Shown one piece after another: positions 57,296 to 62,895 of a stretch of 64,000 nt of DNA. Position 1 is the stretch's first letter; the number at the start of each line of letters is the position of its first letter. Source of the DNA: Yinghuangia seranimata. Lineage in GTDB: Bacteria > Actinomycetota > Actinomycetes > Streptomycetales > Streptomycetaceae. Made by a program: the position numbers and the translations under genes. The stretch lies in assembly GCF_029953285.1 (NCBI RefSeq), contig NZ_JASAOI010000078.1, positions 1-64,000 of the forward strand, in the 5' to 3' direction. Below the pieces are notes generated by a model. It saw only the letters and a list, made by a program, of their open reading frames with translations. It ran no database searches and was not told the origin of the DNA.

Positions 57296-57727
57296 TCACG
57301 CCACGGAGATCGGCTCGGCGCCGTCGACGTAGACCACATACCCGGCCTCGTCGCCCGTCTCGCCGAGCGGTACCACGGCCAGTCCGAGCGTCGGCCGAGG
57401 AATCCACCCGGTGTCCTTGGGCGGATCGTAGGTGCGTACCTCCTGTACAACCACCGGTGTCGGCGGAATACCCACCAGGCATGCGTCGCCGACCTCAAGA
57501 AGGTCGCTGTCGGGCTCGACCCGCCAGGGTGTGTTCAGCCACTCGCGACTGCGGGGATCCCGGGGGAGGGCCACCTGCCCGTTCCAGCGACTCCGGGAGT
57601 CCGGATCAGGGCTGCGCCAAGGCCATTCGATGAACACATAGCTGCCCGCGACCCGGGCCACACGGGCGTCCTCCGGAGGGCAGGCGAGGCTCACCGTGTC
57701 GCCGACCTGGATCGTGTGCGCAGGCAT
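57296..57727 (-). CDS. probable immunity protein of the Rhs toxin
   Basis: A 143-residue cytoplasmic protein that I do not recognise as a named family. It starts MPAHTIQVGDTVSLACPPED, with alternating beta strands and an acidic composition. It ends VVYVDGAEPISVA. ATG at 57727 follows AGGAG at a good distance and lies 30 bases after the Rhs toxin stop on the same strand. In polymorphic toxin loci the small gene directly after the toxin tip is the immunity gene, so that role is the best inference. It would bind and block the deaminase-like tip. Confidence 0.7.
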   Translation of the reverse strand: MPAHTIQVGDTVSLACPPEDARVARVAGSYVFIEWPWRSPDPDSRSRWNGQVALPRDPRSREWLNTPWRVEPDSDLLEVGDACLVGIPPTPVVVQEVRTYDPPKDTGWIPRPTLGLAVVPLGETGDEAGYVVYVDGAEPISVA

Positions 57728-57757
57728 GCGAATTCTCCTGTCTGATCTCATTCGTCG

Positions 57758-60700
57758 TCACACGGGATCGTCGGGATCGCTCCAGAACATCCGCCATGGC
57801 GTCTTGTCCGGATTGCCGGGGAATTCCGGGCCACCCACGATGATTCCACGTTGGTTCAGGAGGGGATAGCATGTCGCTTCGCATATGTTGCGCGACGTTC
57901 CGCCGAATTCGACGAATTCGCGGGGGCCGAGTGAGTTTATCACTCCCTCCTCGGCGTGGCCTTCGCCGGGAGCGAACGCATCCTTGGCCCATTGCGGCCA
58001 ACTGTCCGGCGCCTCTGTGGCGCCTCCGTTGATCCCGGTACGAATACTCAGGTCACCGCTGGCCGCGTCGCGGACGCCGATGACCGTAGTGGTTCCCCAT
58101 ACCCCGGCGTCCCAGTGGTCGTTGGTGGCGGTGAAGCGCAGGTCCTGAAGGTCCTGCGCGGCCTGTTGGGCGAGGACGGCGTCGTCGTACGTGCTGAGTC
58201 CCGGCTCGTATGTCGACAAGCCGAGCGGATCAAATGCCGTGAGCGGATTCCCGACATAAGAATGGTTGTTGGGTCCCGCGCGGAATCCGAGAGGATCAGG
58301 GCTCGCGTAGGAGCCGACCTCCGGGATATACCAGCGGAAGAAGTTCTGGCGGAGCTCGGACTCGACGTCGTCCTGCTGCCCGGCGAAACCCCTGCGTGGC
58401 GGTCCGGTTTCGTTGCCCACGGGGGCACCCCAGAGGCTGCTCCGCTGAGGGCTCTCTCGTGTGCCGCTCACATCGACCGTGGAGGTCGGCGTCCCGACGC
58501 GGTCCGCGACGATGACGCGGAAGGCGGATCCACCGTCCGTCCGCGTCGACGGTGAGACGGGTTGCGAAACGGCTGTCTCGGTGAGAGCGCGGTGCGTTCG
58601 GGGTGCGAAGTCCCAGGTCGTTGTCTCGTCTTTGCCGGTGACGGTCTCCGTTAAGCACGGGCCGTCCCAGACGAACTCCTCACACTGCGCGGGGCCGGCG
58701 GTCGCCGATGTGCGGCGCTTGGCCGTGCGACGGCACAAAGGGTCGTAGATGTACGTCCACTCGGACCCGTCCGGAGCCGTCATGGCGGTCAGCCGGTCGT
58801 CGGAGTCCCAAGCGAACGTCCAGGCGCGTCGGGCCCCGGAGAGGAGCCGCTTGGTGCGGCGGATCAACCGGCCCTGGGCGTCGTGCTCGTAGTGGGTGCG
58901 GCCTGCGCGGCGGATCAGTGTTCCGGAGAACTGGCGGTCTCCTTGGCCGCACCCGTCGTCCGGGGACGGTCCTGTCGGCCATTCGGCCCGGGCTATGTTG
59001 CCCAAGGCGTCGTAGGCATAGCGCTCGGTCCAGTCCCGCGCGTGGACGGCGGTGACGCGGCCGACCGGATCGAGGTCGTACGTGGTGGTGCCGTACTCAG
59101 TGTCCGTATGGGTGGTGGGGAAGCCGTCCGCACGGTACGTGTAGGTGCGGCGGTGGAGTTCGCGAGGGCCGGCGTCCGGACTGAGCGCTGCGGTGACCGG
59201 GTCGACGGGGGCGCCCCGGCGGATCGACTGCGCGGCGAGTCGGCCCAGGGGGTCCCACTCCTGCGCGAGCGTCACGTCGTCGCCGAATCGGCGTTCGGTC
59301 TCCCGACCGAGGAGGTCATGGGAGAAAGCGACGAGGTTCCCGGCGCTGTCGAGGGTGAGGGGGCGGCCTGCGGCGTCGTACGTCCACGTGCTTACATGCC
59401 CCGACGGGGTCTGGCGACGTATTCGGCGTCCGAGTGCGTCGTAGCTCTTCGTGAGGCGGCGGCCGTTGGACACCTCGGCGGTGGTCCGACCCAAGAGATC
59501 GTATTCGAAGGTGAGTTCGACGTCGGGGTTGGCTGTGTGCACCAGCCGGCCTGCTGTGTCGTAGGTGTACGTGGTCGCGCGGCCGGTGGCGACATGAATC
59601 TGACGCGTGACTTTGCCGCGCGTGTCCAGCTCGTATGAGACCTCTTCGCCCGCACCGTTGACGCGGGCCACGATACGGCCGACGGCGTCCAGGCCGTAGG
59701 CGACCTCGCGCCCGTCGAAGTCCCGCTCGGCGACGAGCCGACCCGCGGGGTCGTAGCTGTATGTCCAGGACTGTCCGAGAGGGTTCGTGACCGAGGTCAA
59801 CCGCAGCTCGGTGTCGTAGCCGAATTCGTAGCGGGTGCCGTTCTGGTCGGTACGTGCCGCTGGTTTGTCGAAGTGGGTGACCTCGTAGAGTCGAAGGCCG
59901 CCGTTCTTGTCCCGGTACTCCGTCAGGTTGCCTTCGGCGTCGTACGTCCAGTGCTCGCCGACGTCGTTGCGGACACGGCTCAGCGACTTGCCCTCGATGG
60001 TCCATCGGTTGTGAGTGGTCTCGCCTATGGCGTCGGATACTTGGGAGGGGCGGCCGAAAGCGTCACGGGTGACGCGTGTGCGGGCGCCGACCGGGTCACG
60101 CATGTCGAGAGGCAGCCCTGCCGCGTCGTGAGTGAGGCGCCGTACACCGCCGAGCGCGTCCGTGACGGCGACCGCGCGTCCCCATTGGTCGCGTTGGTAC
60201 TCCGTGCGGGCACCGGACGGGTCGACGACGGCGGTGCGGTTGCCGCGGTTGTCGTACTCGTACGTCCATGTCGTGGCGTCGGCCCCGGTCCTGAGGAGCG
60301 GGTTGCCGAAACCGTCGTAGGTGGCTGTGGTCGTCGTGCCGTCGGCCCGCTCGGCGCGGGTGACGCATCCGAGATCGTCGTAGGTGAAGCGGGTCGGGTG
60401 GCCGAGCGCGTCGGTGAATGCGAGCAGGCGGTTTCGGTCGTCCCATTCCTTGTGGATGGTGTTCCCCAGCGGATCCGTCTCGCTGGTGATCTGGTACGCC
60501 GCGTTGTAGCGGTAAATCGTGCTGTGGCCCAAGGAGTTCGTCGCCGTTGTGGTGCGTTCGGCGTCGTTGTAGGTGAAGCGGGTGTCGAGGACGCCGTCCT
60601 TGCCTGTTGTGCGTATGCACCGGCCCGACGCGTCGTACTCGTAGACCGAGGACATGCCTATGCGGTCGGTCCAGCCGGTGATGCGGCCTGACGCGTCGTA

Positions 60701-62530
60701 GGTGAAGCGCAGGGGGAGGTCGGAGGAGTTGTAGACCTCGGTCAGGTCGCCGTTGAGGTCGTAGGCGTAGCGGACCAGGACTACCCCGTCGGGGTGTTCG
60801 GGGTCGCGCATGTGGGTTTCGGGGTGGGTGTCGCGGAGGCGGAGGCGGGTGACGCGGCCGTGTTCGGTTTCGATGCCTATGCGGTAGCCGCCGCTGTGCC
60901 AGATCTCGGTGGGGGCGCCGGCGGCGTCGTAGACGATGTCGATCTGGTTGCCGTTGCGGTCGGCGACGGCGACCAGCGGGAGGATCAGGCCGTCGCGTCC
61001 GATCTCGGGTTCGGCGCCGGTCGGGTTGGCGAAGTAGCGGACGAGGCCGCTGCGTTGGTCGCCGACCGCGAACGCGCCGCCCGGGGTGCCGTCCCAGGCC
61101 AGGGCGAGGGTCGAGCCGGTGACGGGGAAGACGCGTTCGCCGGCCTCGGGGGTCGGGTAGTGCAGGATTCTGCCGTCGGTGTCGGCGAACACGACCTGAC
61201 CGCCCGCGACTTCGAGGTGCTGGTCAAGCCAGGACGACCACGAGCGGCCGAACCAGCGGCCGCGGCGGTAGTTGGACAGGTGCTTGCGGGTCAGGACCAG
61301 CGGCAGTGTGCCGGGCAGGGCGACGTCGGTCTGGGGGAGGATCATCGCGCCGTTGGCGACCTCGACCGGGTCGCCCGCGGTGCTCTGCGCCTCTTCGGGT
61401 GTGGCCGTCTTGTTCGCGGCGACGGGGTCGATCGGTTCGCCTTTGGGGGCGAACGGGAGTTTGCCAGGTGCCACTTTGCCCGCGCCGTAGCCGGCGGCGC
61501 CGCTGGCCGCGCCCAGGGCGAGGTCCTGGAGGGTGATCGGCTTGCCGGTCGCCGCGTCGATCATGGCCGTGGTCCCGGCGCCGAAGGCCATCTGGCCGGG
61601 TAGGGAGGCCAGCACGGTCGGCACCTTGGAGGTGATCGAGGTGAGGCCGGGCGCGACCGATTCGAGCTTGCTGAGGGCGGCGGGCATGCCTTCGACGGCT
61701 CCGCCGGTGACGGCGCCCGTGAGCGCGCCGGTGCCGGCGACCGACAGCAGGTGGGACGCGCTCAGGTCCATGCCGTTCTGGACGCCGCCCGCCCACAGGA
61801 TCGGCTGTGTGACGGCGAGGTCGACGGTGACCGCGACGATGGCGCCGGAGACGCCGTAGACGAAGGCGCCCGCCACGATGGTGGCGACCGCGGCTGACAT
61901 CTCGACGCCGACGCCCGCCGCGAGCGAGACCAGGCCGTCGGCCGCCGCGGTGGCGGCCGCGCCGCTGATGCCGCCCGTGCCGATCGCCAGCGCCGCGCCC
62001 GCGAGGATGGTCGCGGCGACGGCCATCACCTCGACCTTGAGCTTGTCCTTGGTGTCCTCGGTGTGTTGGGCGAGCTTGTCGAGCGCGTCCGCGTTGGCGT
62101 GGCAGGCCTTGGCCGTCTCGGGCAGCCATCCGGCGCCGGAACTGTCGTACTGGGCCCAGAACTTGCCGAGGTTGTCGATCGCCGGGCCGCGGTTGTTCTG
62201 GGTGACGGACTGCGTCTTCGCCGTGGACGCGCCCCGGACGCCGTCGATCGCGTCGGCCATCGTGCGGTACGCCCGGGCCGCCTCGCGCAGCTTGTCCTCG
62301 TCGGCCTCGGGCCAGTACATGCCGGTGAGTTTGATGACCTTCTCGAGTGCTTCGTCCGCGAAGTTGAGGACGTACTCGGCCATTTCCTCGACTTTTTCGG
62401 CGAACTCCTTGGTGACGTTGTAGACCGACTTGCCGACGCTGACGACCGCGCCGCCTACCGCGTCCGCCGCGTCCTCGACCGTGTCGACGACGTCGCCCGC
62501 CATGTCCTCGACGGCATCCCAAACACCCAT
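57758..62530 (-). CDS. Rhs-repeat polymorphic toxin with deaminase-like tip
   Basis: A 1590-residue toxin. The N-terminal 130 residues are helical and ESX-export-like (WDAVEDMAGDVVDTVEDAAD). A hydrophobic stretch lies near 165-260. A DUF6531-type domain starts near 385 (GDPVEVANGAMILPQTDVAL). Many YD repeats then form the Rhs shell up to about 1430, where DPLGL marks the toxin border. The 155-residue tip has HAEE near 1525 and RNICEATC near 1548-1554, the H-x-E and cysteine-pair pattern of the deaminase fold. ATG at 62530 gives the full domain set. A WXG100-like gene precedes it by 35 bases and a probable immunity gene follows. Confidence 0.9.
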   Translation of the reverse strand: MGVWDAVEDMAGDVVDTVEDAADAVGGAVVSVGKSVYNVTKEFAEKVEEMAEYVLNFADEALEKVIKLTGMYWPEADEDKLREAARAYRTMADAIDGVRGASTAKTQSVTQNNRGPAIDNLGKFWAQYDSSGAGWLPETAKACHANADALDKLAQHTEDTKDKLKVEVMAVAATILAGAALAIGTGGISGAAATAAADGLVSLAAGVGVEMSAAVATIVAGAFVYGVSGAIVAVTVDLAVTQPILWAGGVQNGMDLSASHLLSVAGTGALTGAVTGGAVEGMPAALSKLESVAPGLTSITSKVPTVLASLPGQMAFGAGTTAMIDAATGKPITLQDLALGAASGAAGYGAGKVAPGKLPFAPKGEPIDPVAANKTATPEEAQSTAGDPVEVANGAMILPQTDVALPGTLPLVLTRKHLSNYRRGRWFGRSWSSWLDQHLEVAGGQVVFADTDGRILHYPTPEAGERVFPVTGSTLALAWDGTPGGAFAVGDQRSGLVRYFANPTGAEPEIGRDGLILPLVAVADRNGNQIDIVYDAAGAPTEIWHSGGYRIGIETEHGRVTRLRLRDTHPETHMRDPEHPDGVVLVRYAYDLNGDLTEVYNSSDLPLRFTYDASGRITGWTDRIGMSSVYEYDASGRCIRTTGKDGVLDTRFTYNDAERTTTATNSLGHSTIYRYNAAYQITSETDPLGNTIHKEWDDRNRLLAFTDALGHPTRFTYDDLGCVTRAERADGTTTTATYDGFGNPLLRTGADATTWTYEYDNRGNRTAVVDPSGARTEYQRDQWGRAVAVTDALGGVRRLTHDAAGLPLDMRDPVGARTRVTRDAFGRPSQVSDAIGETTHNRWTIEGKSLSRVRNDVGEHWTYDAEGNLTEYRDKNGGLRLYEVTHFDKPAARTDQNGTRYEFGYDTELRLTSVTNPLGQSWTYSYDPAGRLVAERDFDGREVAYGLDAVGRIVARVNGAGEEVSYELDTRGKVTRQIHVATGRATTYTYDTAGRLVHTANPDVELTFEYDLLGRTTAEVSNGRRLTKSYDALGRRIRRQTPSGHVSTWTYDAAGRPLTLDSAGNLVAFSHDLLGRETERRFGDDVTLAQEWDPLGRLAAQSIRRGAPVDPVTAALSPDAGPRELHRRTYTYRADGFPTTHTDTEYGTTTYDLDPVGRVTAVHARDWTERYAYDALGNIARAEWPTGPSPDDGCGQGDRQFSGTLIRRAGRTHYEHDAQGRLIRRTKRLLSGARRAWTFAWDSDDRLTAMTAPDGSEWTYIYDPLCRRTAKRRTSATAGPAQCEEFVWDGPCLTETVTGKDETTTWDFAPRTHRALTETAVSQPVSPSTRTDGGSAFRVIVADRVGTPTSTVDVSGTRESPQRSSLWGAPVGNETGPPRRGFAGQQDDVESELRQNFFRWYIPEVGSYASPDPLGFRAGPNNHSYVGNPLTAFDPLGLSTYEPGLSTYDDAVLAQQAAQDLQDLRFTATNDHWDAGVWGTTTVIGVRDAASGDLSIRTGINGGATEAPDSWPQWAKDAFAPGEGHAEEGVINSLGPREFVEFGGTSRNICEATCYPLLNQRGIIVGGPEFPGNPDKTPWRMFWSDPDDPV

Positions 62531-62565
62531 GACCCGAGTCCCCCGACTCTCGAAATCCGGTACCG

Positions 62566-62895
62566 CTACTGCTTGTACGCGGCAGCGTTCGACTGGTCCT
62601 GCGCCGTCGTGTTGTCCGCCAGCGCGCGCAGCGCCGGGTCCATGCTCGCGATGCCCTGCGCCATCACGCCGAGGGCCTTGAACAGGCTTTCCTGGGCGGG
62701 GACGAACCCGGGGTTCGTGCCGTCTCCGTTGGCGAAGACCTTGCCCTGGTCGTCGTCGCCCCACGGCGCTCCGAGGCCGGCCATCGTGGCCTGGAGGGCG
62801 GTCAACGCCTTGTGCAGCGTGTCGCCCTCGGTCGTGAACGCCGGTGCGGTGGAACGCAGATCGTCCGGATGAATCGCGAAACCGTCGGCCGCCAT
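62566..62895 (-). CDS. WXG100-like ESX secretion partner
   Basis: A 109-residue, mainly helical protein with the size and layout of EsxA/WXG100-type or Rv3865-like ESX partners. It starts MAADGFAIHPDDLRSTAPAF, has a central turn with GLGAPWGDDDQGK in place of WXG near residue 40, and a second long helix to the end. It lies 35 bases upstream of the Rhs gene on the same strand and probably acts as a chaperone or co-secreted partner for export by a type VII-like system. No secretion machinery genes are in this window. Confidence 0.88.
   Translation of the reverse strand: MAADGFAIHPDDLRSTAPAFTTEGDTLHKALTALQATMAGLGAPWGDDDQGKVFANGDGTNPGFVPAQESLFKALGVMAQGIASMDPALRALADNTTAQDQSNAAAYKQ

What the first reader, a model, noticed from the sequence alone, without database searches (positions are those of the whole stretch)
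57758..62895. ESX-linked Rhs toxin with an unusual deaminase-like tip
Seen: WXG100-like gene, then a 1590-residue Rhs protein whose tip carries HAEE and RNICEATC. The H-x-E plus cysteine pair is the mark of the deaminase fold, but the pair is C-x3-C, not the common C-x2-C. Known: such tips in other families edit DNA, RNA or nucleotides. Inference: a possible new subclass of deaminase toxin. A+T content rises in the tip, as expected for exchanged toxin ends.
Basis: partly seen in the sequence, partly recalled or inferred. Interest (0 to 1): 0.6.

Follow-up and report, generated by a model that had tools for sequence, protein, structure and literature searches.

The report
Unclassified deaminase-like bacterial toxin tip
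A soil actinobacterium carries a large secreted toxin whose last 154 residues look like an uncatalogued kind of base-deaminating enzyme, paired with a small downstream gene that probably protects the producer; it is a new branch of a known toxin type, not a new principle.

Summary
A 1590-residue Rhs protein (57758-62530, minus) with a WXG100-like N-terminus ends in a lower-GC 154-residue tip carrying HAEE and RNICEATC. Homologous backbones in relatives carry other tips, so this is an exchanged toxin end. The tip matches no Pfam, NCBIfam or PHROG family. Relatives occur in Streptomyces, Actinomadura, Kitasatospora, Actinacidiphila, Paractinoplanes and Saccharothrix, and as a fragment on a Treponema plasmid. 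AlphaFold2 (pLDDT 85.7) gives a deaminase-like order of elements with H/E and both cysteines where the zinc site should be; 49 of 50 listed structural neighbours are zinc deaminases, but the Z scores are modest (at most 6.7). Profile comparison links a broadened family remotely to XOO_2897-type deaminases (0 of 150 shuffles as good). C-x3-C is not the novelty: spacing runs from x2 to x9 within the family and also varies in XOO_2897 relatives. What is new is an uncatalogued family with two unrelated putative immunity families that do not mix on the tip tree. Substrate and activity are untested.

The parts
62566..62895 (-). WXG100-like small gene, presumed ESX secretion partner (109 aa)
   Evidence: Weak matches below cut-off to PF06013 and TIGR03930
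57758..62530 (-). Rhs polymorphic toxin, 1590 aa
   Evidence: RHS_repeat E 6e-79, DUF6531 E 6e-24, Rhs_assc_core E 9e-15
61949..62347 (-). WXG100_2 N-terminal secretion domain (residues 62-194)
   Evidence: PF25547, 50.5 bits against a cut-off of 27
58217..58231 (-). DPLGL, putative Rhs autocleavage motif in front of the tip
   Evidence: Direct reading; the end of the Rhs_assc_core match; DPLGL is called a motif of Rhs aspartyl proteases in passages of PMC8636562
57761..58222 (-). Deaminase-like toxin tip, 154 aa
   Evidence: Homologues, model, structural neighbours
57947..57958 (-). HAEE: predicted zinc His and catalytic Glu
   Evidence: 16 of 17 rows keep His, 17 of 17 keep Glu; at the start of the helix after strand 2
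57869..57892 (-). RNICEATC: predicted zinc cysteine pair
   Evidence: Both Cys invariant in 17 of 17 rows; between strand 3 and the next helix
57296..57751 (-). Putative immunity gene (immA family); likely start at 57727 after AGGAG
   Evidence: The next gene beside related tips, four-member alignment A4; adjacency table; weak SH3/Tudor-like barrel model

Best explanation
An antibacterial polymorphic toxin. The WXG100-type N-terminus sends the Rhs protein out through an ESX (type VII) system, the Rhs shell holds the C-terminal tip, and cleavage at DPLGL frees it. The tip is a zinc-dependent deaminase of an uncatalogued family remotely related to XOO_2897-type deaminases: H89, C114 and C118 hold zinc and E91 activates water to remove an amino group from a base, most likely cytosine in nucleic acid. 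The next gene encodes the immunity protein. Shown here: gene anatomy, homologues, conservation of the four residues, exchange of tips on the same backbone, co-inheritance with immunity genes, predicted fold. Inferred: secretion, cleavage, zinc binding, deamination, substrate, immunity.
For: Model pLDDT 85.7, pTM 0.84, element order helix-strand-strand-helix(HAEE)-strand-(C114/C118)helix-strand-strand. In the structural second look, 49 of the 50 entries listed are deaminase-superfamily proteins: best SsdA 9c63 Z 6.7, rmsd 3.9, 109 aligned; CDA Z 6.6; DddA Z 5.1; only Top7 is not. H/E and Cys conservation. Two relatives (L139/L140) carry the canonical C-P-T-C. Broadened family against XOO_2897: score 31.3 against at most 19.1 in 150 column shuffles, H-E and the cysteines in register. 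One relative hits PF14440 at E 7e-4. Same backbone with 11 different tips in 11 of 11 non-self loci read. Tip tree: immA and immB groups each need one change, 0 of 500 shuffles. EccC in own genome at 868 bits.
Against: No Pfam/NCBIfam/PHROG match for the tip. Foldseek gave no PDB match at E<=0.001; the best deaminase row has E 0.33. All Z scores are under 8, a range the tool warns may mean only a common arrangement. The tip-only alignment (17 rows) against XOO_2897 was not significant (Prob 0.85%, E 0.065); only the broadened family gave the signal, and its members' direct PF14440 hits are below Pfam's cut-off. immA homologues are mostly not beside a tip (4 of 53 places). The WXG100 neighbour is below cut-off and the EccC hits lie on other contigs.
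Confidence: 0.7

Rival explanations
1. A deaminase that acts on RNA/tRNA or free nucleosides/nucleotides rather than DNA.
For: The closest structural neighbours after SsdA are free-cytidine and blasticidin deaminases at tied Z (6.5-6.6). No data on substrate.
Against: The tied top row is a toxin acting on ssDNA (SsdA), and the three deaminase toxins tested in the passages of PMC7901873 that I saw act on DNA. Nothing here decides.
Confidence: 0.35
2. A deaminase-like fold that binds metal but does another chemistry, or is catalytically dead.
For: Z scores modest, sequence link remote; L020 has lost the His and L015 reads HAD in place of HAE.
Against: H/E and both Cys are kept in 36 of 41 de-duplicated loci across divergent tips, and the exceptions include frameshifted, truncated or deleted copies (L032, L129, L133).
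Confidence: 0.2
3. The downstream gene is not an immunity gene but an unrelated, widely spread small protein that happens to lie there.
For: A4 profile matches 52 of 394 family genomes, only 4 of 53 places beside a tip.
Against: Adjacent in 8 of 48 rows, none of them inside the immB clade of the tip tree, where 18 of 18 rows have immB instead; orphan immunity proteins are described for other systems (start of the abstract of PMC10539506 in the listing).
Confidence: 0.15
4. HxE and a Cys pair by chance in a tip of unrelated fold.
For: Short motif.
Against: Conservation in homologues and the predicted fold.
Confidence: 0.05

Closest known systems
XOO_2897-like deaminases (PF14440)
   Same: HxE, variable Cys-pair spacing, strand 1 to Cys pair align in register with the broadened family; also ride Rhs and HINT scaffolds
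   Different: Window tip has no PF14440 hit at E<=10; YTExxPC-type end of strand 3 against GGxSRNxC; no helix between the last two strands in the tip model
SsdA / BaDTF2 (DYW-like) ssDNA cytosine deaminase toxin
   Same: Top structural row, Z 6.7 over 109 residues; toxin with an immunity partner (PMC7901873 passages)
   Different: 14% identity; no match to any Pfam model, DYW included, at E<=10
DddA-like / SCP1.201 (PF14428, BaDTF1)
   Same: Deaminase fold, Z 5.1 over 94 residues; variable Cys spacing in the sample
   Different: No profile link once the shared HINT tail is trimmed: 22 of 150 shuffles score as high
YwqJ deaminases (PF14431)
   Same: Same superfamily by Pfam name, common in the same bacteria
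   Different: Only a 20-column match, 2-3 of 150 shuffles as high; C-x2-C in 18 of 19 sampled

Membership tests
Deaminase superfamily | HxE zinc/catalytic motif at start of helix 2 | tested here: met
   HAEE 89-92, helix 90-96; His in 16/17, Glu in 17/17 rows
Deaminase superfamily | Second motif, two Cys after strand 3 (CxxC in the 2012 survey) | tested here: met
   C114-x3-C118, invariant in 17/17; spacing differs from CxxC, but two relatives have C-x2-C
Deaminase superfamily | Alpha/beta fold of five strands and helices | tested here: met
   Predicted model only; 49 of 50 listed neighbours are deaminases, Z<=6.7
Deaminase superfamily | Zinc binding and base deamination | not testable with these tools
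   Needs protein
XOO_2897-deam (PF14440) | Pfam gathering score | tested here: not met
   No hit at E<=10 for the tip or any of 17 members; one distant relative 20.1 against 27 bits
XOO_2897-deam (PF14440) | Remote profile similarity | tested here: inconclusive
   Broadened family Prob 55%, 0/150 shuffles; tip-only alignment not significant
DddA-like (PF14428) | Pfam score / profile similarity | tested here: not met
YwqJ-deaminase (PF14431) | Pfam score | tested here: not met
SsdA/BaDTF2 | Structural kinship specific to this family | tested here: inconclusive
   Z 6.7, tied with CDA rows
Polymorphic toxin system | Same backbone, exchanged tips | tested here: met
   11 of 11 non-self backbone loci read have other tips, 0 match the tip HMM
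Polymorphic toxin system | Immunity gene directly downstream | tested here: inconclusive
   Position and co-inheritance fit; protection not tested, and most immA homologues stand apart from tips
T7SS/ESX effector | WXG100-type N-terminus | tested here: met
   PF25547 50.5 bits, cut-off 27
T7SS/ESX effector | Secretion machinery in the genome | tested here: met
   EccC-a 868 bits on contig C74, not adjacent
T7SS/ESX effector | Actual ESX-dependent export | not testable with these tools
   Needs a secretion assay

The most novel reading that the evidence does not exclude
The tip founds a deaminase toxin family outside the described ones, in which the zinc cysteine loop is freely remodelled (x2 to x9) while H/E and both Cys are kept, with a substrate or sequence preference unlike DddA, SsdA or BaDTF3, and in which one clade has swapped a helical (weakly DUF416-like) immunity protein for an SH3-barrel one.
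Probability: 0.35. Interest if true: 0.55.

Novelty: new variant of a known kind. Interest (0 to 1): 0.42.

Why it matters
Deaminase toxins have become base editors and are known mutagens of bacteria, so an uncatalogued family with its own cysteine loop and its own inhibitors is a testable source of new specificities. Two unrelated immunity families on one toxin family would be a natural experiment in how immunity is replaced. If the activity proves to be that of a known deaminase, it is one more member of a large toxin class.

Tried and rejected
Pfam, NCBIfam, PHROG scans of the tip: nothing. PDB sequence search with the A2 profile: only unrelated rows, best a 40-residue match to 8frf at E 9e-4. 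Foldseek on PDB and viral models: nothing at E<=0.001. Viral contigs: 12 pattern matches, 0 relatives. An apparent DddA-like profile link (Prob 58-80%) was an artefact of the HINT tail left in both alignments; after trimming it vanished, so I dropped it. The idea that C-x3-C defines a subclass was rejected. The guess that the downstream gene occurs only with this toxin was rejected. Iyer et al. 2011 is not held, so its division of families (helix-4 or hairpin) is recalled, apart from what PMC7901873 passages say of SsdA. Literature searches that gave no description of this tip family: (search listings; passages read in PMC3482391, PMC7901873, PMC8636562, PMC9846239, PMC6653060). Rows left out: from the tree, L012, L015, L017, L133, L034, L130 (42 of 48 kept); from the spacing count, 15 duplicates of 56, and L007, L008 and L017 did not appear in that search's output (two earlier versions of the count, picked wrong stretches for some rows and are superseded); from A2, L032 and L034 (frameshifted or cut).

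Full report
What is there. On the minus strand a small WXG100-like gene (62566-62895) is followed by a 1590-residue Rhs protein (57758-62530) and then a 151-residue ORF (57296-57751, probable start 57727). The Rhs protein has a WXG100_2 domain above its cut-off at residues 62-194, a DUF6531 domain, RHS repeats and an Rhs-associated core ending at DPLGL. The separate WXG100-like gene is only a weak, sub-threshold match. The genome encodes EccC (868 bits) on another contig. The tip, the last 154 residues, has 64.5% GC against 69.2% for the rest of the gene; none of 129 same-length windows in the rest is as low.

Exchange. The Rhs backbone has homologues in 30 of 41 related genomes at E<=1e-100 (own genome included). 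In the 11 non-self loci I read (of 104 places listed), the residues that follow the DPLGL region are 11 different tips, none matching the tip HMM. Conversely, the tip occurs on other scaffolds: PT-HINT with Rhs or ricin-lectin repeats, Rhs with DPLGL, a protein without recognisable Rhs repeats (L029), and a proline-rich protein with a probable membrane segment in the same genome. This is a polymorphic toxin tip.

Relatives. 9 of 120 related genomes match the tip by sequence at E<=0.001. A profile matches 7 of 394 genomes drawn from the class and 21 of 394 from the family; the own genome is counted each time. A scan of GTDB species genomes gave 18 loci in Streptomyces, Actinomadura, Paractinoplanes, Actinacidiphila, Kitasatospora and Saccharothrix. 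Plasmids gave two: Streptomyces goshikiensis and a Treponema saccharophilum plasmid. Viral contigs gave none.

Fold and active site. In 17 aligned tips E91, C114 and C118 are invariant, H89 is in 16 (L020 has Gly), and L036 reads HGE. The AlphaFold2 model (pLDDT 85.7, pTM 0.84) shows helix 12-31, strands 45-52 and 58-64, helix 90-96 starting at HAEE, strand 102-109, helix 118-122 starting at C118, strands 127-130 and 145-148. That is the deaminase order (recalled, and in part from PMC7901873 passages). No helix lies between the last two strands. I had no coordinates, so the zinc geometry was not measured. Foldseek alone was weak (no row at E<=0.001; DddA and APOBEC rows at E 0.3-1). The structural second look lists 50 entries, 49 of them deaminases: SsdA Z 6.7 (rmsd 3.9, 109 aligned), cytidine deaminases 6.6-5.0, DddA 5.1, TadA 4.6, APOBEC3 about 3. 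Z under 8 is not proof, and the list is enriched in much-studied families.

Sequence kinship. The tip and its 17-row alignment hit no Pfam model at a meaningful E-value. Distant relatives touch PF14440 (XOO_2897-deam): L009 at 7e-4, L014 at 0.021, L132 at 0.13, all below cut-off. By hhalign the 17-row alignment alone does not find XOO_2897 (Prob 0.85%). A broadened family does: score 31.3, Prob 55%, 0 of 150 column shuffles as good (best 19.1), with strand 1, H-E and the cysteines in register. YwqJ is at chance level or nearly so (2 of 150). A DddA-like match disappeared when the HINT tail was trimmed (22 of 150).

The cysteine spacing. In 41 de-duplicated loci (56 found, 15 duplicates dropped), 36 have His and a Cys pair: x3 in 28, x2 in 3 (one decayed copy), x7 in 3, x8 in 1, x9 in 1; one has GAE with x3; four gave no call (L032 and L133 cut short, L129 with a deletion, L015 reading HAD). 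In 22 XOO_2897-type sequences spacing was x6 in 12, x2 in 3, x5 in 2, x8 in 2, x11 in 1, not called in 2; in 19 YwqJ-type, x2 in 18. So C-x3-C is usual for close relatives but is no mark of a new chemistry.

Immunity. In 48 rows examined for downstream genes, 8 have the window's neighbour family (immA, E<1e-38), 18 have an unrelated ~210-residue family (immB, E<1e-69), 6 a weak immB match and 16 neither, among them L021, where the tip runs in frame into immB. On a tree of 42 tips, immA (7 rows) and immB (18 rows, L021 added by reading) each need one change, 0 of 500 shuffles as few. The window's own branch is long and leaves at an unresolved fork between the two clades; three rows inside the immA clade (L029, L125, L126) have neither gene. 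Four of 12 immB members hit DUF416 weakly (best 1.3e-4). immA hits nothing above cut-off; its model is of middling confidence (75.9) and lists SH3/Tudor-type barrels at Z up to 6.3. Against a strict toxin link, immA homologues occur in 52 of 394 genomes and only 4 of 53 places lie beside a tip. I read the rest as orphan immunity genes, as named for another Rhs system (start of the abstract of PMC10539506, listing), but this is inference.

How it probably works. ESX export, Rhs encapsulation and DPLGL autocleavage (seen for a T6SS Rhs protein in passages of PMC8636562), then zinc-dependent deamination by the tip in the target cell, with 57296-57751 as antidote. Only anatomy, homology and predicted fold are shown here. 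DddA (BaDTF1), SsdA (BaDTF2) and a BaDTF3 toxin are known DNA cytosine deaminases (PMC7901873 passages); the held papers that name XOO_2897 report no tested activity for it in the passages seen.

Verdict. The proposed hallmark, C-x3-C, does not carry the claim. What remains new is an unlisted deaminase-like toxin family with two unrelated putative immunity families.

Noticed in passing
Own genome G000:C33:43769-44128; L178 5267-8377 (minus): A second, distant copy of the tip (HAE, C-x7-C) at the end of a proline-rich protein with a probable membrane segment, followed by a 190-residue helical gene.
   Followed up: partly
L119 3977-4183 (Treponema saccharophilum plasmid NZ_AP025290.1): An unannotated 68-residue tip fragment ends 2 nt before an Imm19 gene; the 2012 survey lists Imm19 without a toxin. 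It may point to Imm19's partner.
   Followed up: partly
Streptomycetaceae genomes: An XOO_2897-deam gene and a YwqJ-deaminase gene lie close together: on one contig in 47 of the 54 genomes paired by hand, under 10 kb apart in 46 of these 47. Looks like a conserved chromosomal locus, not a mobile toxin.
   Followed up: partly
L021 49-2091 (Streptomyces lacrimifluminis): Tip and immB read as one open frame without a stop between them; natural fusion or sequencing error.
   Followed up: no
L020, L129, L130, L015: Decayed or altered active sites (His lost, deletion, frameshift, HAD for HAE); L020, L129 and L130 have an open immA gene next door.
   Followed up: partly
L024, L118: The same tip at the end of proteins with ricin-type lectin domains by Pfam (L024) or by annotation (L118), another delivery scaffold.
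   Followed up: no
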